A stretch of DNA of 22,709 nt, from the IMG/VR virus record IMGVR_UViG_3300031600_000035, positions 1 through 22,709 of that record. One strand, written 5' to 3'. Made by a program: the position numbers and the translations under genes. This document shows positions 1 to 21,646 of the stretch, piece by piece. The notes beneath the pieces were generated by a model. It saw only the letters and a program-made list of their open reading frames with translations, was not told where the DNA came from and ran no database searches. Source of the DNA: a virus. The first letter of the stretch is position 1, and the number at the start of each line of letters is the position of its first letter.

Positions 1-2007
1 AACGCAATCATCGTTTCCATTATCTGCCGCATATTTTATATTACCAGAACTAGTTGTATGTTTTACAAATGTGGTTATTTCCCTTATGGTGTCTTCATTA
101 TTTATTGAGAAAGATTTACTAAGCATTAGAGATTGGTAGTCTTTTATAAGTAAATTTTTTAAACTTGTTACTTTAAGTCCTACCTTTTCTTCTGGTGAAT
201 CTATTCTGTGCTTATATCTAACAAATACAGAAGAACCATAATCATTAATACCATCAAAAACATGAGGTAGTTCTGCTAGTAATGTATTTCCATAGTTGTT
301 AAGTTCTAAAACTATTTTAAGGTTATCTGGATTAAAATATTCAAAAGCTAATATATAAAGCAATTCTGACATTTGTTTAATAGATATTATATTACTTCGA
401 TATATCCCAATTTGTTCTAGTTTGAAAAAATCCTTTATTGATGAATACTTTTCTTTTTGTATATCTATGACCTCTCTACTTTTATTACTTATTCTGAATA
501 TGTTTATAACAGAAAAATCTTGACCTAATCCCTCTGCAAGGTCAATTGATAAGACTATTTTATATTCTTTTCTTTTTATAGGGTTGTATATATCATAATC
601 ATCAACCCATTTTAAATTTTCATAGGAAAAATTTAGCTTATCTTCAAATTCATATATCTCCTCCCACTCATAAAGAATTTTATTATTCAATAAATGGTCT
701 ATAATATTTTCACTTAGTAAAGATTTACTAGCATTTACAAATCTAAGACCGTATTCTTGGTTAAAAGCATCTTCTCCACCAATATCTTTTATTGCCTCAT
801 CCTTCCATGTAGTAAGTTCTGCTAACTCTAGTATAGATATCTCTTTACCATCGGGTGTTTTTATATTAAATCCAACAACATCCTCATCATGACAATAATC
901 ATTATTATAAACCTCGATTACATATTTTTGTAAATCAACACTCCAACTCATTTCGACCTTAGTATCAGCACCCCATTTATTATGTACTTGATTAAGAATA
1001 TCATCCTTTTCTATTTTGTTTTCGTATAATTTATGATCATTAAGCCTTATATATGTAACAAACCTACCAGGGACTTGATACCAGTAAACCCTCATAGGGG
1101 TGTAGTTGTTTCTTTGTGGGTCACCAGCTGGTCGTTCTGCATTAGTAAGTAATTTATGAAATAAATTCATACCATTTGGTGTAGATGTGATTATTATTTT
1201 AGAGTTTTTTATTGCAGATACTGTTGGAAAAACCGCAGTATAATATGGTTCTATTATGTTTGAAGGAATATGTGCAAATTCATCTAAATAAAGAACATCA
1301 ATAGTAAAACCAATAGCTGGAGTCTTTGTCCTAGCAGAGGTCTTAATACGACAACCATTGTCAAATGTTAGTGATTTTTGATTCCATGTTTTTATACCAG
1401 GTTTTAAAAAAAATGGTAGTAATGAATAAATGGATTTTATCTTGTCAACAATCTCAACTGATGTATCTCCCTTGTTAGCTACAATCATAATGTTTTTATC
1501 ATTATTGAATAGTATTGTATGGAGCATAAATATAGAAGCAGATATAGTATTATGTGAAAGTATCCCATTCGTGTAGAACCTATGATTCTGATGGTCTACC
1601 GATAAATCAAACATAGAGACTTTTGAATTTCTACTCCCAATATATTTTACACTTTGTAAGCCATCATCTGTATGTATATAATCACCTATATTTATGTCTT
1701 TTACAAAGACTTCATCTAATTTATCATTGAATAAAATATGCCTGTCTGCACATTCTATATAATAACCATTTGATAACTCAACTCTCCATATCTTATATGG
1801 TTGTGTTATGTGTAATTCTGGTACATCTACAAAGCCAGTATCTGACATAACTTTTAATCCACTCACATTAATTGAGTTTATTATTTTTTTAGAAATATCA
1901 TTCTCATCTAGTATTAGTTTATTATATTCAATATTTTCTATTAATTCTATTAATTTATATAAAATATCTATTGTCTTTATCTTTATGTGCTTAAAAATTT
2001 GATACAT
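1..2007 (-). CDS. C-terminal split-intein fragment fused to large terminase C-terminal part (partial)
   Basis: The open frame runs from ATG at 2007 off the left edge (669 codons, no stop). Residues 1-153 are a C-terminal intein fragment ending NGILSHN; residue 154 (Thr) onward is the rest of a T4 gp17-like packaging ATPase and nuclease. Thr154 completes the Walker A motif begun by the other gene (SRQVGK + T). Walker B is LYLDEF with Asp242-Glu243, the coupling motif is ITSTPNG (273-279), and RNase H-like nuclease acids are Asp489 (LSIDLAEG), Glu568 (VLELN) and Asp666/667 (GNDDCV). The last matches the third catalytic Asp of T4 gp17, so perhaps 40-50 residues are missing. The start overlaps the endonuclease gene by 25 nt; two in-frame stops lie just before it, so ATG 2007 is the first possible start. 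After trans-splicing the product should be the motor that packages DNA into proheads. Confidence 0.93.
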   Translation of the reverse strand, partial: MYQIFKHIKIKTIDILYKLIELIENIEYNKLILDENDISKKIINSINVSGLKVMSDTGFVDVPELHITQPYKIWRVELSNGYYIECADRHILFNDKLDEVFVKDINIGDYIHTDDGLQSVKYIGSRNSKVSMFDLSVDHQNHRFYTNGILSHNTISASIFMLHTILFNNDKNIMIVANKGDTSVEIVDKIKSIYSLLPFFLKPGIKTWNQKSLTFDNGCRIKTSARTKTPAIGFTIDVLYLDEFAHIPSNIIEPYYTAVFPTVSAIKNSKIIITSTPNGMNLFHKLLTNAERPAGDPQRNNYTPMRVYWYQVPGRFVTYIRLNDHKLYENKIEKDDILNQVHNKWGADTKVEMSWSVDLQKYVIEVYNNDYCHDEDVVGFNIKTPDGKEISILELAELTTWKDEAIKDIGGEDAFNQEYGLRFVNASKSLLSENIIDHLLNNKILYEWEEIYEFEDKLNFSYENLKWVDDYDIYNPIKRKEYKIVLSIDLAEGLGQDFSVINIFRISNKSREVIDIQKEKYSSIKDFFKLEQIGIYRSNIISIKQMSELLYILAFEYFNPDNLKIVLELNNYGNTLLAELPHVFDGINDYGSSVFVRYKHRIDSPEEKVGLKVTSLKNLLIKDYQSLMLSKSFSINNEDTIREITTFVKHTTSSGNIKYAADNGNDDCV
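1549..2007 (-). other. C-terminal half of an atypically split intein (IntC coding region)
   Basis: This encodes 153 residues. The end MFDLSVDHQNHRFYTNGI-LSHN is a clear intein block F plus block G, with penultimate His152 and terminal Asn153, and the +1 extein residue is Thr154. A block B-like stretch (YYIECADRHIL, His90) lies inside this piece. In ordinary split inteins block B is in the N-terminal piece. The first ~50 residues form an acidic, probably helical extension (ELIENIEYN and so on) not needed in the minimal intein fold. The position normally held by Thr in block B (T-x-x-H) is Ala87, preceded by Cys86; gp41-1 has Ser there. Confidence 0.9.
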
Positions 2008-2969
2008 TTATCAATTATTATTTTTTTCTTATCAATACCAACTGCTCTAAATTCAGAATCCCATATATATAATACTTCATAACCAGATTCTGTTGCAATT
2101 CGTAATTTTTCTTTATCCTTAATCCATATATCATCTGCTGTCATGTCTTTTCTAAATGGGTGTGGTCTGTCATGTTCTTTGAAAGTTTTAGGATTCGCAT
2201 GGTATTGATCTCCTTGGTATTCAATTATTTTCATTCTATCAGTATGTGTAAAATCATATAACCATACACCACCACTTTTCTTTCTAAGAGGCATCTCTCC
2301 ACCATTTAATGCAAATCTGAAATTCCCTTCCATCCCATATGATATTGATTTAAACAATACTTGACTTATGTTAGAGTATCCTAATTTTAAATTACCATTT
2401 TCATTGAGAGATTTTTGCCATTTCTCTTGTCTTTTATTGTATATGTCTGTGCCTTTATCTTTTCCGTGTTTTTCAATACATTTTTCAAGTGTGAATGTAG
2501 TTTGTCTTTCACTAAGCATCTCTTGTGATGTTTCCTCATCATAACCCCTTAGTAAATAATATTCCAAACTAGTATCTGATATTCTATCCTTAATAGCTTC
2601 CTTTGCAAAAATACTTATATGCTCCTCTATATTCTCTACACCCTCATATTTTGAAAAATTCTTTGAAAATGGACTTCTTGATTTTCTTTCTAATTCAGTT
2701 GTATTTTTTTTGTGATTAGGATTTTTTGTGCCTCTTATTTTTTCAGCAAACATTTTTTTATACTTTTCTTTCTTCATATGCTTACCACCATTAATTGTTG
2801 TCTTAGCCTTATCTGATAATGCCATTATAGGAGCACCTTCGTACAATTCTTTATATTCTTTAGTAGTCATGTTATTATGTGCAAATTTTAAATGCTTTCC
2901 ATATATTCTTTTGCATTGCTCACCACATATTCTACATGTTACCGTTTCTTTATTGTCATTTATTATCAT
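1983..2969 (-). CDS. Free-standing homing endonuclease between the split-intein halves
   Basis: The protein has 328 residues from the ATG at 2969; a TTG at 3032 would add 21 residues but looks less likely. Residues 12-31 form a MucR/Ros-like zinc finger (C12-x2-C15, H26-x4-H31, then MTTKEY). Around 79-90 there is a NUMOD3-like DNA-binding motif (RGTKNPNHKKN). At 163-187 there is a KHGKDKG...RQEKWQ segment of a type common in phage homing enzymes. The C-terminal domain (238-306) has YDF, IIEYQGDQYHANP (E250, D254, H257) and IWDSEF, which resemble the Vsr-like EDxHD nuclease fold found beside split inteins. It should cut an intein-less terminase gene and so spread the intein cassette. It lies between the two terminase pieces, 68 nt after the upstream stop, and overlaps the start of the downstream piece. 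The family assignment is from motifs only. Confidence 0.82.
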   Translation of the reverse strand: MIINDNKETVTCRICGEQCKRIYGKHLKFAHNNMTTKEYKELYEGAPIMALSDKAKTTINGGKHMKKEKYKKMFAEKIRGTKNPNHKKNTTELERKSRSPFSKNFSKYEGVENIEEHISIFAKEAIKDRISDTSLEYYLLRGYDEETSQEMLSERQTTFTLEKCIEKHGKDKGTDIYNKRQEKWQKSLNENGNLKLGYSNISQVLFKSISYGMEGNFRFALNGGEMPLRKKSGGVWLYDFTHTDRMKIIEYQGDQYHANPKTFKEHDRPHPFRKDMTADDIWIKDKEKLRIATESGYEVLYIWDSEFRAVGIDKKKIIIDKCIKFLST

Positions 2970-3037
2970 AATTTTATTTTGTTTTCTTTTTATATGCACA
3001 AATATACAAAAAAGTTGTTGGCTTGTTATCAAATAGG

Positions 3038-3553
3038 CTAGGTTAGTAAGCTAATAATTGAGTAAATGCTATATTTTATATAATCACTAATTGTTTTATT
3101 TTTTTTATAAATAAATAGTAATTTATACATAGGTATTTCTACTTCCTTTGTCTTATTATTCTCTGTTATTTTACACAACACCTTGATAATCAGAGAGTTA
3201 CACTTTCCGACCTGTCTACTAGCCATTAATATATTGAATCGATTATCAACAAAATTATCTAATATGTCAGCTTGATAGTCTCTAAGTGTTATTGACCCAA
3301 TAGAACCATCTTCTCTTTTCACCTTACAGTATTTTTCGGTAAAATGGTGTATATCTAGTGCACATTTAACGTATTCTCCTTGTTCGGCACTTGTCATCTT
3401 AAATGTAAGACCTGATCTTCTTAACCCTATTTCATTTTTAAGCCATGGGTTTTGAAACCTTTTTAGTACTATACCATCATTTATCTTATCAGTAGCCTCG
3501 GTAACGTTCTCACTACTAAATACCATTTGTCTTTCTTTCTTAATCTTTGCCAT
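3038..3553 (-). CDS. Large terminase N-terminal part fused to N-terminal split-intein fragment
   Basis: This gene encodes 171 residues. Residues 1-117 are the start of a T4 gp17-like terminase: FQNPWLKNE, an adenine-binding-like region LRDYQADIL (90-98), and the Walker A start ASRQVGK (111-117). The fit to terminase stops abruptly at Cys118, the presumed intein nucleophile. Residues 118-171 are intein-like, with a β-rich block A region (CNSLIIKVLCKITENN...) and then a Lys-rich tail that ends at a stop. No Walker B or nuclease motif is present, so the piece cannot package DNA by itself. The other half is encoded by the gene starting at 2007 on the same strand. The start ATG 3553 is divergent from the small-terminase gene across a 42-nt AT-rich gap that carries promoter-like motifs in both directions. 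Confidence 0.92.
   Translation of the reverse strand: MAKIKKERQMVFSSENVTEATDKINDGIVLKRFQNPWLKNEIGLRRSGLTFKMTSAEQGEYVKCALDIHHFTEKYCKVKREDGSIGSITLRDYQADILDNFVDNRFNILMASRQVGKCNSLIIKVLCKITENNKTKEVEIPMYKLLFIYKKNKTISDYIKYSIYSIISLLT
3041..3202 (-). other. N-terminal half of an atypically split intein (IntN coding region)
   Basis: This codes for 54 residues starting with Cys118 directly after the Walker A Lys117 and ending at the gene's stop codon. The first ~30 residues fit intein block A. The rest (YKKNKTISDYIKY...) is a basic, hydrophobic tail. The AceL-TerL intein, as I recall it, has an N-piece of only about 25 residues, so this tail would be an extension. No block B is present here; it is found in the other half. 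Confidence 0.87.
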
Positions 3554-3595: not shown

Positions 3596-4246
3596 ATGTC
3601 TAAAACAGATAAAGAAAAAAGTAGGATACAAGACGAATTTGATCAAATACAAGGGGAGAATAATGATTTTGATATATCAAAACATTTGGCAGAAGCAGAA
3701 GATTTACCAGACCTTGGTGAGATAAGCTTGTATGATTATGATGCAGATTTAAGCACATCATCACAGCAATCAGTGGAGGTTTTAAGTTCACTTATAGACT
3801 TATACCTAAGTGATGTTCCAAAACTAAAACAACATCCTTATATAAAAAATAAGATGAAGGAAGATGCTATGGTATATTCAGAGGCTATATTCTTGGCTAA
3901 AATGACTAGAAAAAACTTCCTTAACCAACTACGCCAAATTGATAATGGGGAAAGCTCAGCTAGAATGCACGAAGTTGTTAACCAGACTATTGTACAAGTT
4001 AGAGAAAACTCTAAATTTCTATCCACTCAAAGAACTGACTTAGAAAAGTTCTATAAAAATCTAAGAACAGATATGGGATTAGACGATATTGAAAATTCAG
4101 AGGTTTTAGAGTCACAATCTGATAAAGCGAAAGATTCACAAGATGATGGTGATATTGTTGATAATAGAAAACTAAATGACCTTATAAAAGGAGCAATGAT
4201 GAAAGAGAGTGATAATAAAAAAGAAAGTAAGGGTAAAAAGAAGTAA
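3596..4246 (+). CDS. Probable small terminase subunit (T4 gp16-like)
   Basis: This gene encodes 216 residues. The pattern resembles T4 gp16: an N-terminal acidic part with LPDLGEISLYDYD (about 37-49), then a predicted helical central region (55-160) containing ARMHEVVNQTIVQVRENSKFL, which matches the gp16 pattern of a 'x-x-EVV-x-Q...N-K' helix, and a charged Lys/Asp-rich tail. Small terminases of this kind form rings that recognise viral DNA and stimulate the large terminase ATPase. At 216 residues it is longer than T4 gp16 (about 164), mostly through its charged ends. The gene is divergent from, and adjacent to, the terminase N-terminal piece, which supports the call. Its stop abuts the stop of the convergent gene at 4247 with no terminator between. 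The family call is by pattern and context, not by alignment. Confidence 0.62.
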   Translation: MSKTDKEKSRIQDEFDQIQGENNDFDISKHLAEAEDLPDLGEISLYDYDADLSTSSQQSVEVLSSLIDLYLSDVPKLKQHPYIKNKMKEDAMVYSEAIFLAKMTRKNFLNQLRQIDNGESSARMHEVVNQTIVQVRENSKFLSTQRTDLEKFYKNLRTDMGLDDIENSEVLESQSDKAKDSQDDGDIVDNRKLNDLIKGAMMKESDNKKESKGKKK

Positions 4247-5962: not shown

Positions 5963-5986
5963 AGCTATCTATTATTTTTTATACTC

Positions 5987-6271
5987 TTATATTCTTAATC
6001 CACTGTTCCACTTACCACTAAAAAGCCCATCTTCAAAAATTCCATTTAACCAATTACCATAAAATTCACCCCCTTTAAATACACCATAATGCCAATTACC
6101 ACTTAGGTAAACACCATCATGCCATATTAGAGTATTCTTTCTTATTTCTATAACTGCGTTGGAAATTTCGGAGTCTATTAACCAATAGAATTCCTCTTCT
6201 TTAAGTATCTCTACTATCGTATCAATATTTTTATAGGCTTTATCTTTGTAAGTAATCTGTTTAAATTTCAT
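5987..6271 (-). CDS. Small MORN-like/Gly-Trp repeat protein
   Basis: This gene encodes 94 residues. The N-terminal half is a helical region (KNIDTIVEILKEEEFYWLID). Residues 48-94 form short repeats of Trp/Phe and Gly at about 9-10 residue spacing (IWHDGVYLSG, NWHYGVFKGG, EFYGNWLNGI, FEDGLFSGKW), like MORN-type β-hairpin repeats. Such repeats usually form protein-binding surfaces. The protein ends abruptly inside the repeat pattern, so it may be a short or reduced member of a longer family. It is first of a probable minus-strand pair with the 151-residue gene. ATG 6271 is preceded by an ATAATATATA motif at 6293-6302. Confidence 0.62.
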   Translation of the reverse strand: MKFKQITYKDKAYKNIDTIVEILKEEEFYWLIDSEISNAVIEIRKNTLIWHDGVYLSGNWHYGVFKGGEFYGNWLNGIFEDGLFSGKWNSGLRI

Positions 6272-6292
6272 CTTGTTATTAATTTACACTTT

Positions 6293-6302
6293 TATATATT
6301 AT
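6293..6302 (-). promoter_or_regulatory. Candidate promoter ATAATATATA before ATG 6271
   Basis: On the minus strand the motif ends 21 nt before the start of the 94-residue gene. It fits the W-T-W-ATATATA class seen before several first genes. The rest of the 6272-6439 gap holds only the palindromic terminator and AT-rich sequence. Confidence 0.3.
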
Positions 6303-6372
6303 CATTTTAATATTGCTTTTTATCTAAAATCTATTTTATGGATAAAAATTAACATATTAAAAAAAATATAAT

Positions 6373-6408
6373 AAAAAAAGCCAAAATAATATTATTTTGG
6401 CTTTTTTT
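6373..6408 (-). terminator. Perfect 36-bp palindromic terminator
   Basis: The left arm 6373-6390 (seven A, GCCAAAATAAT) is the exact reverse complement of the right arm 6391-6408, giving a GCC/GGC-based stem flanked by A and T runs on both sides. It lies 32 nt past the stop of the minus-strand gene that ends at 6440 and would end its message. By symmetry it could act on both strands, but no plus-strand gene reads into it. Confidence 0.8.
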
Positions 6409-6439
6409 TATCACTTTATGTACTAAATAACATCAGTAC

Positions 6440-6805
6440 TTATAGGCTTTTGTCTAGAAATTCTTTTTCAATTAATGATATCTTATCTATACCTAATCTT
6501 GATATTTTATCAAGAATTTCGTCAGTGTCAAGACTATCTATTATACCTTCTTCAATATCTTGGAAATTTTCTGGTTGTATAGTTTCCAAAAACATTTCAA
6601 TATCAATTACTGAAACTTCCTTAGAAGATTTTGGATGTGTAAAGGCAACTATTCTGTACTCTTCATCCTTCGTAGTTATCCATACTTTACTAAACCCAGC
6701 TTTCTGAGCATTTTTTATACCATCTGGTGATAAAGCAGGATACTTATCTTGAAGTATTCTGTATTCTTTATCTCTCATCTCTGTTAAATCTATACAAATA
6801 ATCAT
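6440..6805 (-). CDS. Hypothetical protein, 121 aa (possible early gene)
   Basis: I do not recognise the family. The open frame can be extended to 7006, but that would overlap the 754-residue gene on the other strand and add a low-complexity hydrophobic stretch without normal coding character. The ATG at 6805 gives 121 residues beginning MIICIDLTEMRDKEY. It has a mixed α/β pattern (KVWITTKDEEYRIVAFTHP, about 42-60) and an acidic helical C-terminus (SLDTDEILDKISRLGIDKIS). It stands alone between a host-type promoter candidate and a strong terminator, unlike the neighbouring operons, which suggests separate, perhaps early, expression. Confidence 0.62.
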   Translation of the reverse strand: MIICIDLTEMRDKEYRILQDKYPALSPDGIKNAQKAGFSKVWITTKDEEYRIVAFTHPKSSKEVSVIDIEMFLETIQPENFQDIEEGIIDSLDTDEILDKISRLGIDKISLIEKEFLDKSL

Positions 6806-6837
6806 AATAATAGTTTTAAGGTTTGATACAAATATAA

Positions 6838-6868
6838 CAAATATATTGACATCAAGAAATAAAACAAG
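6838..6868 (-). promoter_or_regulatory. Candidate Bacteroidota-type promoter
   Basis: On the minus strand CTTG (6868-6865) lies exactly 19 nt before TATATTTG (6845-6838), close to the Bacteroidota consensus TTTG-N19-TAnnTTTG. A second TATATTTG follows at once (6836-6829). The gene starting at 6805 lies just downstream. This is the one place in the window where a host-sigma promoter is easy to see. Confidence 0.55.
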
Positions 6869-6878
6869 TCTTTTATTT

Positions 6879-6888
6879 TTAATATATA
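6879..6888 (+). promoter_or_regulatory. Candidate phage promoter TTAATATATA before ATG 6904
   Basis: The motif lies 15 nt before the start of the 754-residue gene and matches the elements found before 5351, 15108 and 19992 exactly. Confidence 0.4.
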
Positions 6889-6903
6889 TAAAAAAATTCA
6901 TAT

Positions 6904-9168
6904 ATGAAATACCTAAAAAGAAAAAATACATACTTAAGTGAAGCATTTGACATGTCAGGTGGATCATCAGGACCATTGGGCAATGACATAAATTGGGGAG
7001 ATTCATTAGTGGGTAGAATGTTCAATTCTATAGCTAGGAGATTTACAGTTAATTATAATGTTAATAGGATTGAGGCAATAGCTAAAGGCATAGATAGTGA
7101 ATTTGAAATATTGTTAGCATCTGGTGTTATAGAGGGAAGTAAGCAAGAAGATGAATTTAACTTTTTTAAAATATCATTTTTATTGGGTAAGCTAAAAGAA
7201 ATAATTGACAATGAAGAGTCTATAAGTAAAATAAAAGAAAATGTAGAGAACCTTTTAGATTATATATCTGAAATGGATGAATTTAAGAACGATAGAGCTA
7301 GTATTAAAAAAGAATTAGAAGAAAGTCTTCTTAATTTTGAAGAATATTTAAAAGATATTAAAAGTGATTCTACTAATGATGATGGGGATAAAGATGAAAC
7401 TGAAACTGAAACTGAAAGCGATGATTCAGAGGAAGAAACAGATTTAGATCATCAAGAGGTGGTTAAATTAATAGACATAATAACCGATATACTAGAGAGG
7501 GCAGAAGAACTTGAAGAAGAATATAAAAATGTTCCTAGAGTACCTAGCGTATCTAATAAAGTTAGTGATGAAGATGCAGCTATAGAAGGTATGTCAAGAG
7601 AACACAAACAGTACATTAAGCTAAGTAAGCAGATACAAGAACTAGTATCAGAAGAAAATGGCATTAAGCTAGATAAAAATTTTCTAACAAATCTAAAAAA
7701 ACTATATAGTGATGGCAAATCTAAAAAATACTGGATTGACTTAGGAAGAAAGCTTCAATTAGCATACAAAAAATTTAGCAATAAATTTAATGAAAGTGCT
7801 GATATAGATTCTAGTGAAAGTGAAAGGGTGTCTATAGCTAGTAAGATATCAAATTTTGCTAAAAAATTAATGGGCATACCAGAAACAGAACTAGATGGCG
7901 ACTTTGGTAGTTCTATTAAGAAGTTTAATAAGTTATTTAAGAGAATAGTTGATACAGGCATAGATTCTAAAAACGAGAGCAAAATAATTAAATATAATGC
8001 CTTTATGAAGGTATATGAAAAATCTACGAATGGGAAAGAAATTCAAAAATTCTTTTATAAAAACGTAGTATTAGATAATTGGATTGTTGACAAGAGTAAG
8101 GCTGATGATATTAAAGATATTGTTGAGAATTCTACAAAAGATATTAAAAAAATTGAAATAGATCCAATATTAAGCATAGTAAAGCTGTTTAACAAGGCTT
8201 TTAAGGTTTATACAACACAAACTATACCTTCTGGTAGAAGTGGTGGTAAAGTCTCTAATAATGTGTTTAGAAGGTATACTAATTTAGGATCTAATGCAGG
8301 AACTCCAGATAATCCTGGTGGTGGACCATTTATAATAAACAAAGTATTCAATAAATTTGAGGATAAGATACAGAATATTATTAGGGATAATAAATATAAA
8401 GCTTTATTTGATAAAGATACTGAAATAGAATTGGGTGATGGTAGAAGGGTTAAAGGTGGTGGTAAAATACTTCTTAGTTTTATACAGAAACTTCTAGATG
8501 GGGAGAAGCTTTATAAAGGAAATGCTCAAAGTGAATTTTTTAAAGAATACTTTGGAATAGATGTAATACCTAAGAAAATAGGATCTGACAACATAACAGT
8601 TGGTAAAGATAATGAAGACTCACAAGACAGTGATAAAACTACTGTTAAAGATAATACACAAGTTGATAAAGAAGTAATAGACACTTATTTTGAAGAGGTT
8701 AGTAAAATAACTGATACAGAAGGAACAATATATGGTATGTTGTTAGGAAAGCAATTAATGTTTTACCTTATTGTTATTAAAGTGGTGGATGAAGATGTGT
8801 ATGTTAAGTATTCAGAAACATTTTTAAACTTTTCTAAATACTTAGACCAAGACTATAATATTAAAGCTGGTAAGATAAAAAATGTTGAATTAAGACCTAA
8901 ACCAATGTTTTTTGGTAAGATGGATAGAGATTTATTTGATATAACTCCTGGTTCTGATATTAAAGTAGCAGCAGTTAATATTGATATGTTTAACACAAAT
9001 AATGAAAGAACTATAGCTAAAAACTTTAAAGACTTGAAAGATGTTAGGAATATATTTCAATTAGTTGATAATAATAAAGAACCCATCAAGTTCACTGACT
9101 TAGAGAAAACAGCATTTGGACCAATGGATTCTAAAAACTATAAAGATTTAAAAGAAAAATTTAAATGA
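6904..9168 (+). CDS. Large acidic virion-associated candidate with head-targeting-like leader, 754 aa
   Basis: The function is not known to me. The protein has 754 residues. It begins MKYLKRKNTYLSE-A, a short basic leader ending in Leu-Ser-Glu, which fits the T4 prohead protease rule (I/L-x-E). A Gly/Ser-rich turn follows (FDMSGGSSGPLGND, 15-28). Residues about 60-300 are charged and helical, with a very acidic run of Asp/Glu/Thr/Ser at about 153-184. Residues 300-450 are Lys-rich helices, a Gly-rich basic loop (about 440-475) comes next, and the last ~140 residues are more globular with β-strands (ELRPKPMFFG). The position between the terminase genes and the sheath, together with the leader shared with three other families, suggests a structural, core or internal head protein. 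The stop overlaps the start of the next gene by 4 nt (ATGA), so the two are translationally coupled. Confidence 0.75.
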   Translation: MKYLKRKNTYLSEAFDMSGGSSGPLGNDINWGDSLVGRMFNSIARRFTVNYNVNRIEAIAKGIDSEFEILLASGVIEGSKQEDEFNFFKISFLLGKLKEIIDNEESISKIKENVENLLDYISEMDEFKNDRASIKKELEESLLNFEEYLKDIKSDSTNDDGDKDETETETESDDSEEETDLDHQEVVKLIDIITDILERAEELEEEYKNVPRVPSVSNKVSDEDAAIEGMSREHKQYIKLSKQIQELVSEENGIKLDKNFLTNLKKLYSDGKSKKYWIDLGRKLQLAYKKFSNKFNESADIDSSESERVSIASKISNFAKKLMGIPETELDGDFGSSIKKFNKLFKRIVDTGIDSKNESKIIKYNAFMKVYEKSTNGKEIQKFFYKNVVLDNWIVDKSKADDIKDIVENSTKDIKKIEIDPILSIVKLFNKAFKVYTTQTIPSGRSGGKVSNNVFRRYTNLGSNAGTPDNPGGGPFIINKVFNKFEDKIQNIIRDNKYKALFDKDTEIELGDGRRVKGGGKILLSFIQKLLDGEKLYKGNAQSEFFKEYFGIDVIPKKIGSDNITVGKDNEDSQDSDKTTVKDNTQVDKEVIDTYFEEVSKITDTEGTIYGMLLGKQLMFYLIVIKVVDEDVYVKYSETFLNFSKYLDQDYNIKAGKIKNVELRPKPMFFGKMDRDLFDITPGSDIKVAAVNIDMFNTNNERTIAKNFKDLKDVRNIFQLVDNNKEPIKFTDLEKTAFGPMDSKNYKDLKEKFK

Positions 9169-9689
9169 AACATTTAAAAAAGTATAAACTATTCTTAGAA
9201 GATTTTGAAGTTGAGGATAGTGATAGTGAAGATGTTAAACTATCTAAAGAAAAATTAGACAGAGTAAAGACACAAATATCATATTATAACTCTAATAAAT
9301 CAAAAATAGATAAAATTTATCAAGATTTAGAAAATGGTAGTATTAAAGATGATTTAGATAAGGTAATTGGGACTGATAAAGATACAAATCCATTTCTAGT
9401 TAGCTACTCTAGTATAGCTAGTATAACTAGAAGTATTGAGAAGTTAAAAAAGAGAGAAACTGATAAATCGATAGAAAAAAATGAGCTAAAGGATAGACTA
9501 TCAGATGCTAGTGATGATATCTCAAAAGATATAAGTGATAGAATAAGCAAAGTCAATGATCAAATAATTAAAATTAAAAAAGATATTAATGATGCTAGTA
9601 AAAAATTACCTGTATTAGAGAAAAGTCACAAAGAGAAAATGGATAATATAGAACAAGATATTAAAGATTGGATATCTAAAATTAAATAG
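9165..9689 (+). CDS. Coiled-coil protein with head-targeting-like leader, 174 aa
   Basis: The family is unknown. The protein has 174 residues. The leader MKHLKKYKLFLE-D is close to that of the paralog array (MKHIKPYKIFE-S). The cleavage fit is weaker here, because the residue three before the cut would be Phe (F-L-E). An acidic patch follows (FEVEDSDSEDV), then almost continuous charged heptad-like helix from about 25 to 174, with one break near 70-85 (GTDKDTNPFLVSYSS). The high Lys/Asp/Glu content and lack of hydrophobic core fit a scaffold, core or DNA-associated protein. Its ATG overlaps the previous stop by 4 nt. The next gene, the sheath, has its own promoter-like motif. Confidence 0.7.
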   Translation: MKHLKKYKLFLEDFEVEDSDSEDVKLSKEKLDRVKTQISYYNSNKSKIDKIYQDLENGSIKDDLDKVIGTDKDTNPFLVSYSSIASITRSIEKLKKRETDKSIEKNELKDRLSDASDDISKDISDRISKVNDQIIKIKKDINDASKKLPVLEKSHKEKMDNIEQDIKDWISKIK

Positions 9690-13361: not shown

Positions 13362-15062
13362 ATGATAAGCAAAGATTTCTTATATAATTATAAATTTGAT
13401 AATAAGTCTGGTAAAATGTCTATGGAAAAGTATGTTTCAAAGAACTTTTTTGATGATTATACATACATAGTCAAATATTGTGAAGATAATAATATAAATC
13501 ATCTATGTTTTAAAGAAAAGGTATATCATGTTATAAATGATATAAAGACAGATGTCATTTGTGTCAATGAGTTGTGTGATAATCTAGTAAAATTTAAAAA
13601 CTCATCTATGGGGTACTATGATTACTGTTCTAACAAATGTATAGGTAGTGATGATAAAATAAAAAAGAAAAAAGAAAACACCAATTTAAAAAAATTTGGA
13701 CATAAACACGCAGCACATAGTGAGCATGCTAAGGCAATAACTTCAAAAAAATATGAAAACCGAACAAATTCTTATAAAAAAAGTATCTTAAATAAGAGGA
13801 TAAAAACACTAAATGATAGGTATGGTGTTAATAATGTAGCAAGTATAGATGGTCTTTTAGAAAGAAGAGTCGAGTCTTTTAAGAAAAATATAGATGCATA
13901 CAAAGCATCATATAAAAAAACATCCCTTGATAGATATGGTGTAGACCATCCTTGGAAAAATGAAAAAATACACAAAAAAAGCATTCTCAATTCAAAAATC
14001 ACTAAAAATGAAAACTTGTATAAAAAAGTACTAGATAAAATACACACATATGATAACATACACTTTATTAGTATAGATTATCACACTAGAGTAATAAGCC
14101 TACATTGCGATGTGTGTAATGAAGAGTTTAATATACATAGAGAATATTTGCATAACAGACAAAGTGTGGATAATGTAATATGTACAAAATGCAATCCAGT
14201 CAGTAGTAATATATCTGGTCTAGAGAAGGATTTAAAAATATATATAGAGAGCATATATGACGATTTAATAATTGAAAATGATAGAAAAGTTTTAGGTGGC
14301 AAGGAACTAGATATATATTTACCAAATTCTAACATAGCATTTGAGTTTAATGGACTATATTGGCACAGTGAGATTAATAAAGCTAAGAAATACCATTATG
14401 ATAAGACAAATATGTGCTTGAGTAAAGGTGTGTACCTTATGCATATATGGGAAGATGACTGGATATTGAGGAAAGATATAATAAAATCTATCATATCATA
14501 TAAGCTCAAGAAAACAATAGGTTCTATATATGCTAGGAAGTGTCTAATTAAAACAGTCAACATAGAAGATAGTAGAATATTTATGGATAATAATCATATA
14601 CAGGGATATTCTAATTCTAATATAAAATTAGGTCTATATCACAAAGATACCTTAGTATCACTTATGTGTTTCTCTAGACCAAGGGGTGGATCTGATAATG
14701 AATATGAATTAATTAGGTTTTGTAATCTATTAAAAACAAATGTTGTTGGTGGTGCTAGTAAACTATTCAATTATTTATTAAAACAGTATAGTGTTAGCAG
14801 TGTTATCTCATTTTCAGACACCTCTATGTTCGATGGCTCATTATATGAAAAATTGGGATTTGAACATACTAAAAATGTACCAATCGATTACAAATGGATT
14901 ATTGGAAATAGAAGGTGTCATAAATCTAAGTATAGAAAATCACAGCTTATAAAAATGGGTTATGATATAGATAAATCTGAAAAGGAAATAATGTATGAAG
15001 ATGTTATAAGTTATAGAATATGGGACTGTGGGAAGGTCAAGTGGATTTATAAAACGCTATAG
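13362..15062 (+). CDS. Hef-like free-standing homing endonuclease
   Basis: This gene encodes 566 residues. Cysteine pairs at 67/72 and 89/93 form an N-terminal zinc site. Three related DNA-binding repeats of the form 'L-x-x-(K/R)-(F/Y)-G-x-x-(H/N)' lie at about 109-130, 150-172 and 189-206. A second zinc site has C249-x2-C252 and C274-x2-C277. A Vsr/PD-(D/E)XK-like nuclease domain follows: SGLEKDL (285-291), GGKELDIYL with E315 and D317, FEFNGLYWHSE with E328, H335 and E337, then HIWEDDW (361-367). The C-terminal part (about 395-515) looks like a GNAT-type fold (LGLYHKDTLVSLMCFSR, VVGGASKLFNYLL, YEKLGFEHTKN). Hef-like enzymes of this type sit between phage structural genes and spread by cutting genomes that lack them. 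It separates the sheath gene from the paralog array. Confidence 0.85.
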   Translation: MISKDFLYNYKFDNKSGKMSMEKYVSKNFFDDYTYIVKYCEDNNINHLCFKEKVYHVINDIKTDVICVNELCDNLVKFKNSSMGYYDYCSNKCIGSDDKIKKKKENTNLKKFGHKHAAHSEHAKAITSKKYENRTNSYKKSILNKRIKTLNDRYGVNNVASIDGLLERRVESFKKNIDAYKASYKKTSLDRYGVDHPWKNEKIHKKSILNSKITKNENLYKKVLDKIHTYDNIHFISIDYHTRVISLHCDVCNEEFNIHREYLHNRQSVDNVICTKCNPVSSNISGLEKDLKIYIESIYDDLIIENDRKVLGGKELDIYLPNSNIAFEFNGLYWHSEINKAKKYHYDKTNMCLSKGVYLMHIWEDDWILRKDIIKSIISYKLKKTIGSIYARKCLIKTVNIEDSRIFMDNNHIQGYSNSNIKLGLYHKDTLVSLMCFSRPRGGSDNEYELIRFCNLLKTNVVGGASKLFNYLLKQYSVSSVISFSDTSMFDGSLYEKLGFEHTKNVPIDYKWIIGNRRCHKSKYRKSQLIKMGYDIDKSEKEIMYEDVISYRIWDCGKVKWIYKTL

Positions 15063-15107: not shown

Positions 15108-15713
15108 ATGAAACATATAAAACCTTATAAAATATTTGAAAGCAACAGCCCTAACTTCCCAACTACAAGAGAGGAAGTTATAGAAGTGTGTGAAAATTAT
15201 AAAATAATAGATTACACTATTAATGATGATTTAAGTATTGATGTTGATGGTGGTGTTTATTTAGGGGAGAAAGACTTAAAACACTTACCACTTAAATTTA
15301 ATTATGTGAGTGGGATTTTCGTTTGCCGTATTAATAAACTAAAATCCTTGGAAGGTTGTCCTAAAACAGTAAATGGTAGTTTTTTTTGTAGTGATAATAA
15401 ACTAAAATCCTTGGAAGGTTGTCCTAAAACAGTAGGTGATGGCTTTTATTGTTCTAACAATGAATTAAGAGATTTAGAATACTTCCCAGAAGTAGATGGT
15501 ATTATATCTATGAGAGAAAATCCAGTATATCTCTTAGTATACACCTTTATTCAGAATGCTGATAGTTTCCTAATAGAAGATTTTAACGACTATGAAATAG
15601 TTAGAAACAGAGATACTGTTATGTTAGATAGGCTTCAAACCTTTATTAGAGATAACGATTTAAAAATGCCTAATTTGGATAATATTAAAGAATACTATAA
15701 AATAATAGAATAA
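15108..15713 (+). CDS. Array paralog 1: leader plus 2 leucine-rich-like repeats
   Basis: This gene encodes 201 residues and is the shortest complete member. The plan shared by all members is: leader MKHIKPYKIFE-S (1-12), then NFPTTREEVIEVC and YTINDDLSIDV (17-47), an entry repeat (HLPLKFNYVSG), core 21-residue repeats of the form N-x-L-x-(S/T)-L-E-G-(C/S)-P-x-T-V-x-G-x-F-x-C, an exit repeat (LEYFPEV), and a C-terminal helical region (DYEIVRNRDTVMLDRLQ ... YKIIE). Here there are two core repeats. The solenoid is likely to form a small β-rich binding surface. The leader ends in Ile-Phe-Glu, which fits a T4-type prohead cleavage site. The start follows a promoter-like motif, and paralog 2 begins 2 nt after the stop. 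The biochemical role is unknown. Confidence 0.85.
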   Translation: MKHIKPYKIFESNSPNFPTTREEVIEVCENYKIIDYTINDDLSIDVDGGVYLGEKDLKHLPLKFNYVSGIFVCRINKLKSLEGCPKTVNGSFFCSDNKLKSLEGCPKTVGDGFYCSNNELRDLEYFPEVDGIISMRENPVYLLVYTFIQNADSFLIEDFNDYEIVRNRDTVMLDRLQTFIRDNDLKMPNLDNIKEYYKIIE

Positions 15714-15715
15714 AT

Positions 15716-16453
15716 ATGAAACATATAAAACCTTATAAAATATTCGAGAGTACAAGTCTTAACTTCCCAACTACAAGAGAGGAAGTTATAGAAGTGTGTA
15801 AAAAATATGATATAGAAAACTACACTATTAATGATGATTTAAGCATTGATGTTGCTGGTGGTGTTAATTTAGCTTATAAAAATTTAGAACACCTACCACT
15901 AAAATTTAATTATGTGAGTGGGAATTTCCTTTGCCGTATTAATAAACTAAAATCCTTGGAAGGTTGTCCTAGAACAGTAAATGGTAGTTTCTTTTGTAAT
16001 GATAATGAATTAAAGACATTAGAAGGTAGCCCACAAACAATAGATGGTGATTTTCATTGCTTTAATAATGAATTAAAGACATTAGAAGGTAGCCCACAAA
16101 CAATAGGTGGTAATTTTCTTTGTTTTGTAAATAAATTAAAATCTTTTGAAGGTTCTCCACAAACAGTAGGTGGTAGTTTTTATTGTGCTGATAATGAATT
16201 AAGAGATTTAGAATACTTCCCAGAAGTAGATGGTAGTACAAATATGAGAGAAAATCCAGTAAATCTATTATTATATACCTTTATCTATTTACCAGAAGCT
16301 AATAATTTCCTCATAGAATATTTCAATGACTATGAGATAATTAGGAACAGAGATACTGTTATGTTAGATAGATTACAAACATTCATAAGGGATAATAATT
16401 TAAAGATGCCTGACTTAGATGAAATAAAAAAACACTATAAAATAATAGAATAA
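15716..16453 (+). CDS. Array paralog 2: leader plus 4 repeats
   Basis: This gene encodes 245 residues with four core repeats. The two middle ones (LKTLEGSPQT, IDGDFHCFNN / IGGNFLCFVN) are almost the same at DNA level, a sign of recent copying. Near the C-terminus it has a 2-residue insertion (IYLPEANNF) and LIEYF where the other members have (L/M)IEDF. The leader is identical to paralog 1. ATG 15716 lies 2 nt after the previous stop. There is no ribosome-binding sequence beyond the AT-rich end of the previous gene, so translation is probably coupled. Confidence 0.85.
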   Translation: MKHIKPYKIFESTSLNFPTTREEVIEVCKKYDIENYTINDDLSIDVAGGVNLAYKNLEHLPLKFNYVSGNFLCRINKLKSLEGCPRTVNGSFFCNDNELKTLEGSPQTIDGDFHCFNNELKTLEGSPQTIGGNFLCFVNKLKSFEGSPQTVGGSFYCADNELRDLEYFPEVDGSTNMRENPVNLLLYTFIYLPEANNFLIEYFNDYEIIRNRDTVMLDRLQTFIRDNNLKMPDLDEIKKHYKIIE

Positions 16454-16455
16454 AT

Positions 16456-17193
16456 ATGAAACATATAAAACCTTATAAAATATTCGAGAGTACAAGTCTT
16501 AACTTCCCAACTACAAGAGAGGAAGTTATAGAAGTGTGTAATAGGTATAGAATAAATAACTACACTATTAATGATGATTTAAGTATTGATGTTGAAGGAC
16601 ATGTTAATCTAGCTTATAAAAATTTAGAATACTTACCACTTAGATTTAATTATGTGAGTGGTGATTTTAGTTGTTATGATAATAAATTAAAAACATTAGA
16701 AGGGTGTCCACAAACAGTAAGTGGATCTTTTGATTGTAATCGTAATAAATTAAAAACATTAGAAGGGTGTCCACAAACAGTAAGTGGATCTTTTGATTGT
16801 TATAGAAATAAATTAATAACATTAGAAGGTAGTCCATCAGTAGTGAATGGCAATCTTATATGTTATGATAATAAATTAGAGACATTAGAAGGTAGTCCTA
16901 AAACAATAAATGGGAATTTTCTTTGTTTTGTAAATAAATTAAAAGACTTAGAATACTTCCCAGAAGTAAGTGATTATATAAATATAAGAGATAATCCAGT
17001 AAATTTATTAGTATATACTTTTATTGAAAATGAAGAAACTGATAGTTTTATGATAGAAGACTTCATAGATTATGAAATAGTTAGAAACAGAGATACTGTT
17101 ATGTTAGACAGGCTTCAAACATTCATTAGAGATAATGACTTAGAAATGCCAGACTTGAAAATAATAAAAAAACACTATAAAATAATAGAATAA
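16456..17193 (+). CDS. Array paralog 3: leader plus 4 repeats with an exact internal duplication
   Basis: This gene encodes 245 residues with four core repeats. The first two (LKTLEGCPQTVSGSFDC) are identical over 57 nt with a 63-nt period. The third carries the variant SLOT 'SPSVVNGNLIC', also found in paralog 7. The C-terminal region has a 2-residue insertion (ENEETDSFMIEDF). Its first ~90 nt match paralog 2 almost without change, so the 5' part is being kept alike by recombination. Confidence 0.85.
   Translation: MKHIKPYKIFESTSLNFPTTREEVIEVCNRYRINNYTINDDLSIDVEGHVNLAYKNLEYLPLRFNYVSGDFSCYDNKLKTLEGCPQTVSGSFDCNRNKLKTLEGCPQTVSGSFDCYRNKLITLEGSPSVVNGNLICYDNKLETLEGSPKTINGNFLCFVNKLKDLEYFPEVSDYINIRDNPVNLLVYTFIENEETDSFMIEDFIDYEIVRNRDTVMLDRLQTFIRDNDLEMPDLKIIKKHYKIIE
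16681..16800 (+). repeat. Perfect tandem duplication, 57 of 57 nt, period 63
   Basis: Copy 1 is 16681-16737 and copy 2 is 16744-16800, separated by six bases coding for Asn-Arg. Identity at every base, including silent sites, indicates a very recent unit duplication that keeps the reading frame. Confidence 0.95.
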
Positions 17194-17195
17194 AT

Positions 17196-17927
17196 ATGAA
17201 ACATATAAAACCTTATAAAATATTCGAGAGTACAAGTCTTAACTTCCCAACTACAAGAGAGGGAGTTATACAAGTTTGTGAAAAGTATAGAATAGAGAAC
17301 TATACTATTAACAATGACTTAACAATTGATGTTGATGGTGGTGTTTATTTAGGGGAGAAAGACTTAAAACACTTACCACTTAGATTTAATTATGTGAGCG
17401 GTTATTTTGGTTGTTCTTATAATGATTTAGTATCATTAAAAGGTAGTCCACAAACAGTAGATGGTAGTTTTTACTGTTATAATAATGAATTAAAGACATT
17501 AGAAGGTTGTCCACAAACAGTAGGTGGTGATTTTGATTGTTTTGAAAATGAACTAAAGACATTAGAAGGTAGTCCACAAACAGTAGGTGGTACTTTTAAT
17601 TGTTCTTACAATGAATTAATAACATTAGAAGGTAGCCCACAAACAGTAAATGGGAATTTTCTTTGTTTTGGAAATGAATTAAAAGACTTAGAATACTTCC
17701 CAGAAGTAAGTGGTAGTATAAATATAGAGGGAAACACAGTAAATTTATTAGTGTATACCTTTATTAAAAAAGCCGATAGCTTTATGATAGAAGATTTTAT
17801 AGACTATGAAATAGTTAGAAATGGTAATACTGTTATGCTAGATAGATTACAAACATTCATAAGGGATAATGATTTAAAGATGCCTAATTTAAAAGAAATT
17901 AAAAAACACTATAAAATAATAGAATAG
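17196..17927 (+). CDS. Array paralog 4: leader plus 4 repeats
   Basis: This gene encodes 243 residues with four core repeats (LKGSPQT, LEGCPQT, LEGSPQT, LEGSPQT). It has a variant N-terminal region (REGVIQVCEKYRIENYTINNDLTIDV) shared with paralog 5 only: 17240-17398 is identical to 17974-18132 over 159 nt. The C-terminal region has NGNTVMLDRLQ in place of NRDTVMLDRLQ. Both neighbours are 2 nt away. Confidence 0.85.
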   Translation: MKHIKPYKIFESTSLNFPTTREGVIQVCEKYRIENYTINNDLTIDVDGGVYLGEKDLKHLPLRFNYVSGYFGCSYNDLVSLKGSPQTVDGSFYCYNNELKTLEGCPQTVGGDFDCFENELKTLEGSPQTVGGTFNCSYNELITLEGSPQTVNGNFLCFGNELKDLEYFPEVSGSINIEGNTVNLLVYTFIKKADSFMIEDFIDYEIVRNGNTVMLDRLQTFIRDNDLKMPNLKEIKKHYKIIE

Positions 17928-17929
17928 AA

Positions 17930-18598
17930 ATGAAACATATAAAACATTACAAGATATTTGAGAGTACAAGTCCTAACTTCCCAACTACAAGAGAGGGAGT
18001 TATACAAGTTTGTGAAAAGTATAGAATAGAGAACTATACTATTAACAATGACTTAACAATTGATGTTGATGGTGGTGTTTATTTAGGGGAGAAAGACTTA
18101 AAACACTTACCACTTAGATTTAATTATGTGAGTGGTGATTTTAGTTGTTATGATAATAAATTAAAGACATTAGAAGGTAGTCCACAAACAGTAGGTGGTT
18201 ATTTTTTTTGTTTTGAAAATGAACTAAAATCCTTGGAAGGTTGTCCTAAAACAGTAGGTGATGGCTTTTATTGTTCTAACAATGAATTAAAAACATTAAA
18301 GGGTAGTCCACAAACAGTAGGTGGTAGTTTTTATTGTTTTGATAATGATTTAACTGATTTAGAATATTTCCCAGAAGTAAATGGGGAAATATTTTTAGGG
18401 ATTAATAAAATAAGTCATTTAGTACATAGCTTTATCAAAAATGCTGATAGCTTTATGATAGAAGATTTTAATGATTATGAGATAGTTAGAAACAGAGACA
18501 CTGTTATGTTAGATAGATTACAAACATTCATAAGGGATAACGATTTAGAGATGCCTGACTTAGAACCCATTAAAAACCACTATAAAATAATAGAATAG
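17930..18598 (+). CDS. Array paralog 5: mosaic member with 3 repeats
   Basis: This gene encodes 222 residues with three core repeats. It looks like a chimera: 17974-18132 is identical to paralog 4, while 18222-18290 (69 nt, the CPKTVGDGFYCSNN cassette) is identical to 15400-15468 in paralog 1. The leader has one change (His for Pro at position 6, MKHIKHYKIFE). The exit repeat is unusual (VNGEIFLGINKISHLVHSF). It is separated from both neighbours by 2 nt. Confidence 0.85.
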   Translation: MKHIKHYKIFESTSPNFPTTREGVIQVCEKYRIENYTINNDLTIDVDGGVYLGEKDLKHLPLRFNYVSGDFSCYDNKLKTLEGSPQTVGGYFFCFENELKSLEGCPKTVGDGFYCSNNELKTLKGSPQTVGGSFYCFDNDLTDLEYFPEVNGEIFLGINKISHLVHSFIKNADSFMIEDFNDYEIVRNRDTVMLDRLQTFIRDNDLEMPDLEPIKNHYKIIE

Positions 18599-18600
18599 AA

Positions 18601-19230
18601 ATGAAACATATAAAACCTTACAAAATATTTGAAAGCAACAGTCCTAACTTCCCAACTACAAGGGATGAAGTTATAGAAGTGTGTAAAAAATATGATATAG
18701 AAAACTACACTATTAATGATGATTTGAGTATTGATGTTGATAGTGATATTAGTATTACTTTCCAAAGTTTAGAATATCTGCCTATTAAATTTAATTATGT
18801 AAGTGGTAGTTTTGATTGTGATCATAATAAATTAAAATCGTTAGAAGGTAGTCCACAAACAGTAGATGGTAATTTTTTTTGTCAACACAATGAATTAAAG
18901 ACATTAAAAGGTAGCCCACAAACAGTAGTAAGGCTTTTTGATTGTTCTTTTAATAAATTAACCGATTTAGAATATTTTCCAGAAGTAAATGGTTCGGTAA
19001 TTATATATGGAAATATAGTAAATTTATTAGTATATACATTTGTGGAAAATGCTAATACTTTCCTCATAGAAAATGCTAATGCTTTCCTCATAGAAGATTT
19101 TGTAGACTACGAGATAGTTAGAAACGGTGATACTGTTATGTTAGATAGATTACAAACTTTTATAAGAGATAATAATCTAAGGATGCCTGAGTTAGAACCC
19201 ATTAAAAACCACTATAAAATAATAGAATAG
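18601..19230 (+). CDS. Array paralog 6: 2 repeats and a C-terminal 8-residue duplication
   Basis: This gene encodes 209 residues with two core repeats, the second with an odd end (TVVRLFDCSFN instead of G-x-F-x-C). The C-terminal region has ENANTFLI-ENANAFLI-ED, an 8-residue (24-nt) tandem duplication of a segment present once in the other members; this explains the length over paralog 1 exactly. The entry repeat is also divergent (DISITFQSLEYLPIKF). The next gene, an unrelated acidic protein, starts one nucleotide after the stop. Confidence 0.85.
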   Translation: MKHIKPYKIFESNSPNFPTTRDEVIEVCKKYDIENYTINDDLSIDVDSDISITFQSLEYLPIKFNYVSGSFDCDHNKLKSLEGSPQTVDGNFFCQHNELKTLKGSPQTVVRLFDCSFNKLTDLEYFPEVNGSVIIYGNIVNLLVYTFVENANTFLIENANAFLIEDFVDYEIVRNGDTVMLDRLQTFIRDNNLRMPELEPIKNHYKIIE

Positions 19231-19231
19231 T

Positions 19232-19954: not shown

Positions 19955-19977
19955 TAAATACATTACAAAATAAGTAA

Positions 19978-19987
19978 TTAATATATA
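19978..19987 (+). promoter_or_regulatory. Candidate promoter TTAATATATA, second start within the array
   Basis: It lies 4 nt before ATG 19992, the same motif and spacing as before 15108 and 5351. It probably supplies transcription to paralogs 7 to 10. Confidence 0.45.
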
Positions 19988-19991
19988 CTTT

Positions 19992-20101
19992 ATGAAGCAT
20001 ATAAAACCTTATAAAAATATTAGACAGGTTACAAACATTTATAAGTGATAATGGTTTAGATATGCTGGATTTGAAAGAAATTAAAAAAAATAATAGAATA
20101 A
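19992..20101 (+). pseudogene. Internally deleted remnant of an array paralog
   Basis: The DNA starts like an intact member (ATG AAG CAT ATA AAA CCT TAT AAA, giving MKHIKPYK). It then jumps into the paralog C-terminal region: from about 20022 one frame encodes LDRLQTFISDNGLDM-LDLKEIKK, but the other frame from the ATG stops after 18 codons. Near the end another 8 nt (CACTATAA) are missing relative to intact members. All repeats and most conserved parts are therefore lost. The 18-residue peptide may still be made. Paralog 7 follows 2 nt after the old stop position. Confidence 0.85.
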
Positions 20102-20103
20102 AC

Positions 20104-20772: not shown

Positions 20773-20783
20773 AATAGAATAAA

Positions 20784-21644: not shown

Positions 21645-21646
21645 AC

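What the first reader, a model, noticed from the sequence alone, without database searches (positions are those of the whole stretch)
1..3553. Large terminase gene fractured by a naturally split intein with a free-standing endonuclease between the halves
Seen: gene 3553-3038 stops after a 54-residue segment starting with Cys directly after ASRQVGK. Gene 2007-1 begins with 153 residues ending NGILSHN, then Thr, then Walker B, the coupling motif and three nuclease acids of a T4-type terminase. The three genes are in three different frames, so this is not one interrupted frame. Known: split inteins with EDxHD endonucleases occur in 'fractured genes' of viruses. Inference: the packaging motor of this virus works only after protein trans-splicing within the ATP-binding site.
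Basis: partly seen in the sequence, partly recalled or inferred. Interest (0 to 1): 0.88.

Follow-up and report, generated by a model that had tools for sequence, protein, structure and literature searches.

The report
Huge-phage packaging motor split by intein
The DNA-packaging motor gene of this large bacterial virus is encoded in two separate pieces that carry matching halves of a self-splicing protein element, with a DNA-cutting gene between them, so a working motor most likely forms only after the two proteins are spliced together.

Summary
On the minus strand, a T4-type large terminase (TerL) is cut exactly between the Lys and Thr of its Walker A P-loop into two genes. The first carries a 54-aa N-intein, the second a 153-aa C-intein. 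A free-standing Vsr/EDxHD-fold homing endonuclease gene lies between them. The three genes are in three frames. The C-intein models as a HINT fold (pLDDT 90; nearest VidaL, Cat and gp41-1), and splice-junction residues are conserved in nearly all relatives examined. Relatives show the same site empty, filled by an unsplit intein (L268), split with or without a nuclease, and dispersed: halves lie ~12 kb apart in the 735-kb phage LR756501, ~67 kb apart in a 271-kb contig, and 172 kb apart in Salicola phage SCTP-2. Filled and empty alleles and scattered presence on the TerL tree indicate homing. Known relatives exist: fractured genes, the AceL/GOS-TerL split inteins (at another TerL site), and contiguous inteins at this P-loop site. 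This is therefore a new variant of a known kind. Its value is the full contiguous-to-dispersed series at one site in an essential motor. Splicing itself is not shown.

The parts
3203..3553 (-). TerL N-extein (117 aa, ends ...ASRQVGK)
   Evidence: phrog_5989 4e-17, T4 gp17 1e-8
3038..3202 (-). N-intein (54 aa from Cys1, then stop)
   Evidence: 49-69 aa in relatives; five of six N-halves tested align to a contiguous homolog, the window's own does not convincingly; its type matches the other N-inteins as a profile, 0 of 100 column shuffles reach the score
1983..2969 (-). Free-standing homing endonuclease gene (328 aa; zinc-finger-like N-terminal half, Vsr/EDxHD-fold nuclease end)
   Evidence: phrog_22677 1e-21; model Z 11.1 to Vsr, 9.9 to I-Bth0305I catalytic domain
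1549..2007 (-). C-intein (153 aa, ends SHN) with a long N-terminal helix
   Evidence: PF14890, TIGR01443; HINT model pLDDT 90, best hit VidaL
1..1548 (-). TerL C-extein starting with +1 Thr (516 codons, truncated by the window end)
   Evidence: PF03237 2e-14
3218..3220 (-). Ser codon of SRQVGK (AGY in 16 of 22 intein alleles, 7 of 62 intein-free alleles)

Best explanation
A mobile split intein sits between the Lys and Thr of the Walker A loop of a T4-type large terminase. The N-half protein (N-extein plus N-intein) and the C-half protein (C-intein plus C-extein) are made from separate genes. Inferred: the halves associate, probably helped by the helices on either side of the break; Cys1, block B His, block F, the terminal Asn and +1 Thr then join ...SRQVGK to TISAS..., giving an intact P-loop; unspliced halves cannot form the covalent ATP-binding loop. 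The nuclease gene between the halves most likely cuts intein-free terL alleles during co-infection, so that repair copies in the cassette. Shown here: anatomy, predicted HINT fold, conservation, filled and empty alleles, horizontal spread, persistence without the nuclease, dispersal of the halves. Inferred: splicing and DNA cutting.
For: Intein-free relatives have Thr directly after GK with the two exteins fused: 64 of the 80 loci returned for an extein-only query (best 80 of 149); the other 16 carry the split N-intein, none an unsplit one. In 26 aligned C-inteins H90, D134, H152 and N153 are invariant. HINT model, nearest VidaL, Cat and gp41-1. Natural unsplit homolog L268 (797-aa ORF, 194-aa intein): five of six N-halves tested align within its residues 1-62 (E 2e-4 to 2e-21) and six of six C-halves from residue 43-61 to 194. 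dN/dS of N-intein (0.02-0.47), C-intein (0-0.39) and endonuclease (0.05-0.18) is below 1 wherever it could be computed in 14 pairs. Mobility: intein presence needs 13 changes on an 80-row TerL tree, at least 12 forced; filled/empty pairs 87-95% identical; phages with 98-100% identical exteins carry C-inteins only 53% identical (DNA profile); intein dS is far below extein dS in L024/L025 and L005/L015. Trans: halves dispersed in LR756501, in a 270,756-b contig, on opposite strands in L035, and in SCTP-2.
Against: No splicing product or cleavage activity was seen. The window's own N-intein is divergent: an HMM of the other N-inteins scores it only 8.9 bits (E 0.11; 0 of 200 shuffles reach it), and for its relative L004, 42 of 200 shuffles score as high; it does not align convincingly to unsplit L268 (E 0.12). 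L086 ends SSQ instead of SHN. The halves are not strictly co-inherited: L017 and L024 share a 98% identical N-intein but their C-inteins are only 62% identical, and C-intein distances follow the exteins about as well as they follow the N-intein (r 0.60-0.65). The junction-proximal dips in filled/empty pairs are not unique in the profiles. The huge-phage relatives are metagenomic assemblies.
Confidence: 0.9

Rival explanations
1. RNA-level splicing: a group I or II intron with its endonuclease gene interrupts terL and is removed from the mRNA, as reported for terL of gut Jug phages.
For: terL genes split by group I introns are described in other huge phages (PMC12363816, passages).
Against: No Rfam match at E<=1 in the whole window; the interrupting sequence encodes conserved intein residues and a HINT fold right up to the junction; in several genomes the two pieces lie on opposite strands or tens of kb apart.
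Confidence: 0.03
2. Two-piece terminase without splicing: the halves assemble non-covalently and the intein pieces serve only as an assembly clamp.
For: A ribonucleotide reductase split by a homing endonuclease is reported to keep its function as two peptides (PMC10448857, passage). The intein halves are probably associating modules (inferred).
Against: The break is between the P-loop Lys and Thr, and Cys1, penultimate His, Asn and +1 Thr (Ser in 2 of 80 loci) are kept, which a clamp would not need.
Confidence: 0.04
3. Decaying remnant: the gene is broken and another terminase does the packaging.
For: The 735-kb and 462-kb phages also carry truncated TerL-like paralogs.
Against: Purifying selection on all parts; no second above-cutoff TerL ATPase in the 201, 271, 276 and 462 kb records, and the paralog in the 735-kb phage lacks the Walker A Lys and ends before the nuclease domain; both halves are open in dozens of loci.
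Confidence: 0.03

Closest known systems
Fractured genes with split inteins and a free-standing Vsr-like/EDxHD endonuclease (Dassa et al. 2009; recalled, paper not held)
   Same: Essential phage gene cut in two by split-intein halves with a nuclease gene between
   Different: Here the break is between intein blocks A and B (short N-piece), the host gene is TerL at its P-loop, and some members have lost or exchanged the nuclease or dispersed the halves
AceL-TerL and GOS-TerL atypical split inteins (and consensus Cat)
   Same: TerL, short N-intein (25 and 37 aa), long C-intein (104 and 115 aa) (PMC11766414, passages); similar C-intein fold
   Different: Cat-like loci sit at another TerL site...SHN|CEFLGSV with +1 Cys (10 of 80 fetched loci inspected). 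Ours is GK|T with +1 Thr and has extra helices on both halves (54 + 153 aa)
Contiguous P-loop TerL inteins: mycobacteriophage TerL1-a; Ackermannviridae such as Klebsiella phage Magnus and Vibrio phage VAP7
   Same: [quoted passage not shown])
   Different: One uninterrupted ORF
VidaL split intein (PDB 6vgv)
   Same: Best structural match to the C-intein model (E 5e-8, rmsd 1.1)
   Different: Host gene and site not compared here
Cyanobacterial DnaE split intein (recalled)
   Same: Halves encoded far apart and joined in trans, no nuclease left
   Different: Here intermediate stages survive side by side in one family at one site

Membership tests
Class 1 intein | Nucleophile at position 1 | tested here: met
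   Cys1 in all 27 distinct N-inteins of the set; a distant MAG contig (L338) reads Thr
Class 1 intein | Block B TxxH | tested here: inconclusive
   His invariant but the motif reads CADxH, with Ala at H-3; CatC reads CSDNH
Class 1 intein | Penultimate His, terminal Asn, +1 Cys/Ser/Thr | tested here: met
   HN invariant in 26 of 26 of A3; SSQ in L086; +1 Thr in 78 and Ser in 2 of the 80 loci listed
Class 1 intein | HINT fold | tested here: met
   C-intein model pLDDT 90; VidaL, Cat and gp41-1 are the top PDB hits
Split intein | Two separately encoded complementary halves | tested here: met
   Separate ORFs and frames; halves of relatives tile contiguous L268; halves far apart in some genomes
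Split intein | Trans-splicing activity | not testable with these tools
   Needs bench work
AceL/GOS-TerL group | Insertion before the CEFLGS segment with +1 Cys | tested here: not met
   Ours is at GK|T with +1 Thr; the Cat-type site was read from 10 Cat-like loci, not from the AceL or GOS records themselves
Fractured gene with free-standing endonuclease | Nuclease gene between intein halves | tested here: met
EDxHD homing endonuclease | Vsr-like nuclease fold as in I-Bth0305I | tested here: met
   Z 9.9 to 3r3p, rmsd 2.5, 94 aligned; Z 11.1 to Vsr 1cw0; Foldseek alone E 0.087 and 0.010-0.038
EDxHD homing endonuclease | The named catalytic residues | tested here: inconclusive
   D239, E250, H257 invariant in 21 sequences; not superposed residue by residue
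EDxHD homing endonuclease | Cuts the intein-free allele | not testable with these tools
   Indirect only: filled/empty alleles and changed flank codons
T4-type large terminase | ATPase domain with Walker A/B | tested here: met
   PF03237, phrog_5989, T4 gp17
T4-type large terminase | C-terminal RNase H-like nuclease (PF17289) | tested here: inconclusive
   No PF17289 match on the truncated window ORF at E<=1; TerL profile phrog_2 extends to residue 557

The most novel reading that the evidence does not exclude
At one codon junction of one essential gene, phages preserve the whole route from a mobile intein to a permanently two-gene protein: empty site, contiguous intein, split intein with nuclease, split intein with an exchanged or lost nuclease, and halves dispersed by up to 172 kb, one of them in three pieces. 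In these huge phages, including the 735-kb LR756501, the packaging motor depends on trans-splicing of proteins made from distant genes.
Probability: 0.7. Interest if true: 0.75.

Novelty: new variant of a known kind. Interest (0 to 1): 0.62.

Why it matters
Why some split inteins, such as DnaE's (recalled), lost their endonuclease and became dispersed is usually told from the endpoint. Here the stages exist side by side at one site, which makes the order of events testable on a tree. It also means that a terminase gene in huge phages can lie in two or three fragments that annotation may miss, and that the motor's ATP-binding loop is assembled after translation, a possible control point for packaging. 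The P-loop-site split inteins (N-pieces near 50 aa, +1 Thr) are also a large set to explore for protein ligation. Salicola phage SCTP-2, a sequenced phage with a named host, gives a way to direct proof.

Tried and rejected
Rfam scan of the window for an intron: nothing at E<=1. Pfam, NCBIfam and PDB sequence searches on the endonuclease gave only weak hits; fold comparison was needed. Foldseek alone gave no endonuclease hit at E<=0.001. General exon co-conversion was not supported: similarity among intein+ alleles is not raised over the 300 nt on either side. A short co-conversion or site-change footprint is only suggested: in six filled/empty pairs the 30 nt before the junction fall to 70-87%, but other bins fall as low (L004 at -240: 0.73; L023 at +540: 0.63), and the free partner of L004 (L059) also has an AGY Ser codon. 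Strict pairing of N and C halves was considered (partial Mantel r 0.61 given C-extein distance, no p value computed for the partial) but L017 versus L024 breaks it. Bacterial genomes: only 2 distant relatives. Class correction: L286 (same contig as L017) was put with the EDxHD type, but its intervening gene is phrog_3339 type; the phrog_3339 label of the other class was checked afterwards on four loci (L316, L290, L288, L331). Papers sought and not held: Dassa 2009, Bachmann 2015. Literature searches listed no title or abstract start describing this P-loop split TerL intein; one search listed 20 of 28 papers, and subscription papers are missing from the library. Paper texts were seen only as passages.
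Full report
OBSERVATION. On the minus strand the window holds three open frames in three frames: 3553-3038 (171 aa), 2969-1983 (328 aa) and 2007-1 (runs off the window). The first is the start of a T4-type large terminase up to the P-loop Lys (SRQVGK), then Cys and 53 more residues. The third has 153 residues ending SHN, then Thr and the rest of TerL. The window is an IMG/VR fragment of 22,709 b.

SITE. In a search with the N-extein alone, 64 of 80 loci (best 80 of 149) have Thr directly after GK and run on into the C-extein. The other 16 have Cys and stop 54-62 aa later. The insertion is therefore exactly between the P-loop Lys and Thr. Cat-type (AceL/GOS-like) TerL inteins sit elsewhere: 10 of the 80 loci fetched with the CatC query were inspected, and all 10 read H|NCEFLGSV or, split at the Asn, HN|CEFLGSV. 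Contiguous inteins at the same Lys-Thr junction are known in mycobacteriophages (PMC5050341, passages) and occur in Klebsiella phage Magnus, annotated as an intein, and in Vibrio phage VAP7.

INTEIN. 26 aligned C-inteins keep H90, D134, H142, H152 and N153. The model (26-row alignment) has pLDDT 90: one helix (residues 2-27), then an all-beta HINT domain; the best PDB hits are VidaL, Cat and gp41-1. N-inteins are 49-69 aa. L268 is a natural unsplit form, a 797-aa ORF with a 194-aa intein. Of six N-halves tested, five align within its residues 1-62; six of six C-halves align from residue 43-61 to 194, so the split falls inside its helical segment. The window's own N-intein is the sixth and does not align convincingly (E 0.12). 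Its type matches the other N-inteins as a profile (hhalign score 27.9, probability 48%; 0 of 100 column shuffles reach it, best 13.8), but single-sequence HMM scores are weak.

NUCLEASE. Of 22 aligned members, 12 match DUF559, 10 match MTES_1575 and 19 match ROS_MUCR (zinc-finger-like, N-terminal half). The model's C-terminal domain matches Vsr (Z 11.1) and the I-Bth0305I catalytic domain (Z 9.9, rmsd 2.5).

MOBILITY. On a tree of 80 TerL proteins (22 intein, 58 free) intein presence needs 13 changes, at least 12 forced by well-supported branches; the tree used the quick method and has long branches. Six filled/empty pairs (87-95% identical over 1.2 kb) fall to 70-87% identity in the last 30 nt before the junction and 87-90% in the first 30 nt after it, although a few other bins fall as low. 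The Ser codon 6 residues before the junction is AGY in 16 of 22 intein alleles and 7 of 62 free alleles (Fisher p 1.5e-7, not corrected for relatedness). Same-species phages L008 and L009 have 95-100% identical flanks in 60-nt bins (alignment ends aside) but N-inteins at 54% DNA identity and divergent C-intein and nuclease end, while the nuclease's N-terminal part stays 93-100% identical. Over 28 loci, N-intein and C-intein distances correlate (r 0.65; 0.61 given C-extein distance), while N-intein and C-extein do not given the C-intein (-0.12); C-intein distances also follow the exteins (r 0.60-0.65). Over the 23 loci with the nuclease, its N-terminal half tracks the exteins (r 0.91-0.95) and its nuclease half less (0.36). 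L017 and L024 are a counterexample to strict pairing.

ARRANGEMENTS. A profile query gave 365 confirmed loci, of which the best 80 were examined. 48 were classed split with an EDxHD-type gene (47 after correcting L286). 6 (7 after the correction) have a phrog_3339-type homing endonuclease, on either strand; the label was checked by hmmscan on L017, L316, L290, L288 and L331. 8 are split with a gap under 500 b and no nuclease found, 2 have a nuclease remnant, 1 has a longer gap with no nuclease found, and 1 is contiguous. In 14 the N-half was not in the locus; 12 of those have under 2.5 kb of DNA to the left, so the contig end may explain them. Dispersed cases: L037 (2.85 kb with minus-strand ORFs between), L035 (N-half on the opposite strand); LR756501 (735 kb): 12.4 kb apart; a 270,756-b contig: C-half at 115,281, N-half near 184,880, about 67 kb between them; Salicola phage SCTP-2: genes 534, 267 and 224, all annotated terminase large subunit, 172 kb and 38 kb apart. 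In SCTP-2 a second split intein (genes 267 and 224) is read by eye; a further contiguous intein in gene 224 matches PF14890 at 4e-17.

SELECTION AND OTHER COPIES. dN/dS is below 1 for every part wherever it could be computed in 14 pairs; three N-intein values are undefined. PF03237 searches found no further above-cutoff TerL in the 201, 271, 276 and 462 kb records; the 276-kb record has one extra sub-threshold hit; none of the IMG/VR records is classed complete. LR756501 has one extra truncated paralog reading SRQMGI instead of SRQxGK.

SECOND INTEIN. In L009, whose C-extein is 99.8% identical to that of L003 over 517 residues, a contiguous intein of about 365 aa (PF14890 1.5e-15, over its cutoff) is inserted at ...NGNDDC|V in the nuclease part; L003 lacks it, L037 and L033 have one at the same motif. 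The window ends exactly at NDDCV, so whether its phage carries this second intein is unknown.

CONCLUSION. The system is a new variant of a known kind. What adds interest is the complete series from empty site to dispersed genes in the packaging motor of huge phages. Splicing and DNA cutting remain inferred.

Noticed in passing
window 1-10; L009 C-half 5974-9318: A second, contiguous intein sits at the nuclease motif ...GNDDC in the same-species phage L009 (and in L037, L033) but not in L003; the window's contig ends exactly at this site, perhaps an assembly break caused by mixed alleles.
   Followed up: partly
window 15108-22567: Tandem array of nine paralogous ORFs, most beginning MKHIKPYKIFE, with LEGCPQTVGG-like repeats, and one unrelated gene (19232-19954) among them.
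   Followed up: no
window 13362-15062: A second homing endonuclease gene (phrog_3339, E 3e-105) shortly after the tail sheath gene; the same family sits between the terminase halves in L017, L316, L290, L288 and L331.
   Followed up: partly
window 3596-4246: Acidic 216-aa gene divergent from the terminase N-half, with similar-looking genes next to it in L316 and L273; possibly the small terminase, but no Pfam or PHROGs match.
   Followed up: no
L096 2855-4027; L086 7937-8749: Truncated TerL-like paralogs with Walker A Lys replaced (SRQMGI) in the 735-kb and 462-kb phages.
   Followed up: no
L338 3204-5890: In an Erysipelotrichales MAG contig, split TerL with apparent Thr at intein position 1 and Ser at +1, halves about 150 b apart, no nuclease.
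   Followed up: no
L341, L348, L349 (Salicola phage SCTP-2): Terminase encoded by three dispersed genes with apparently two split inteins and one contiguous intein.
   Followed up: partly
window 5987-6271; L095 8129-10198: Short W-x-G-G-x-F-type repeat proteins (GNWHYGVFKGGEFYGNW; WNGGTFSGG) near the terminase genes.
   Followed up: no
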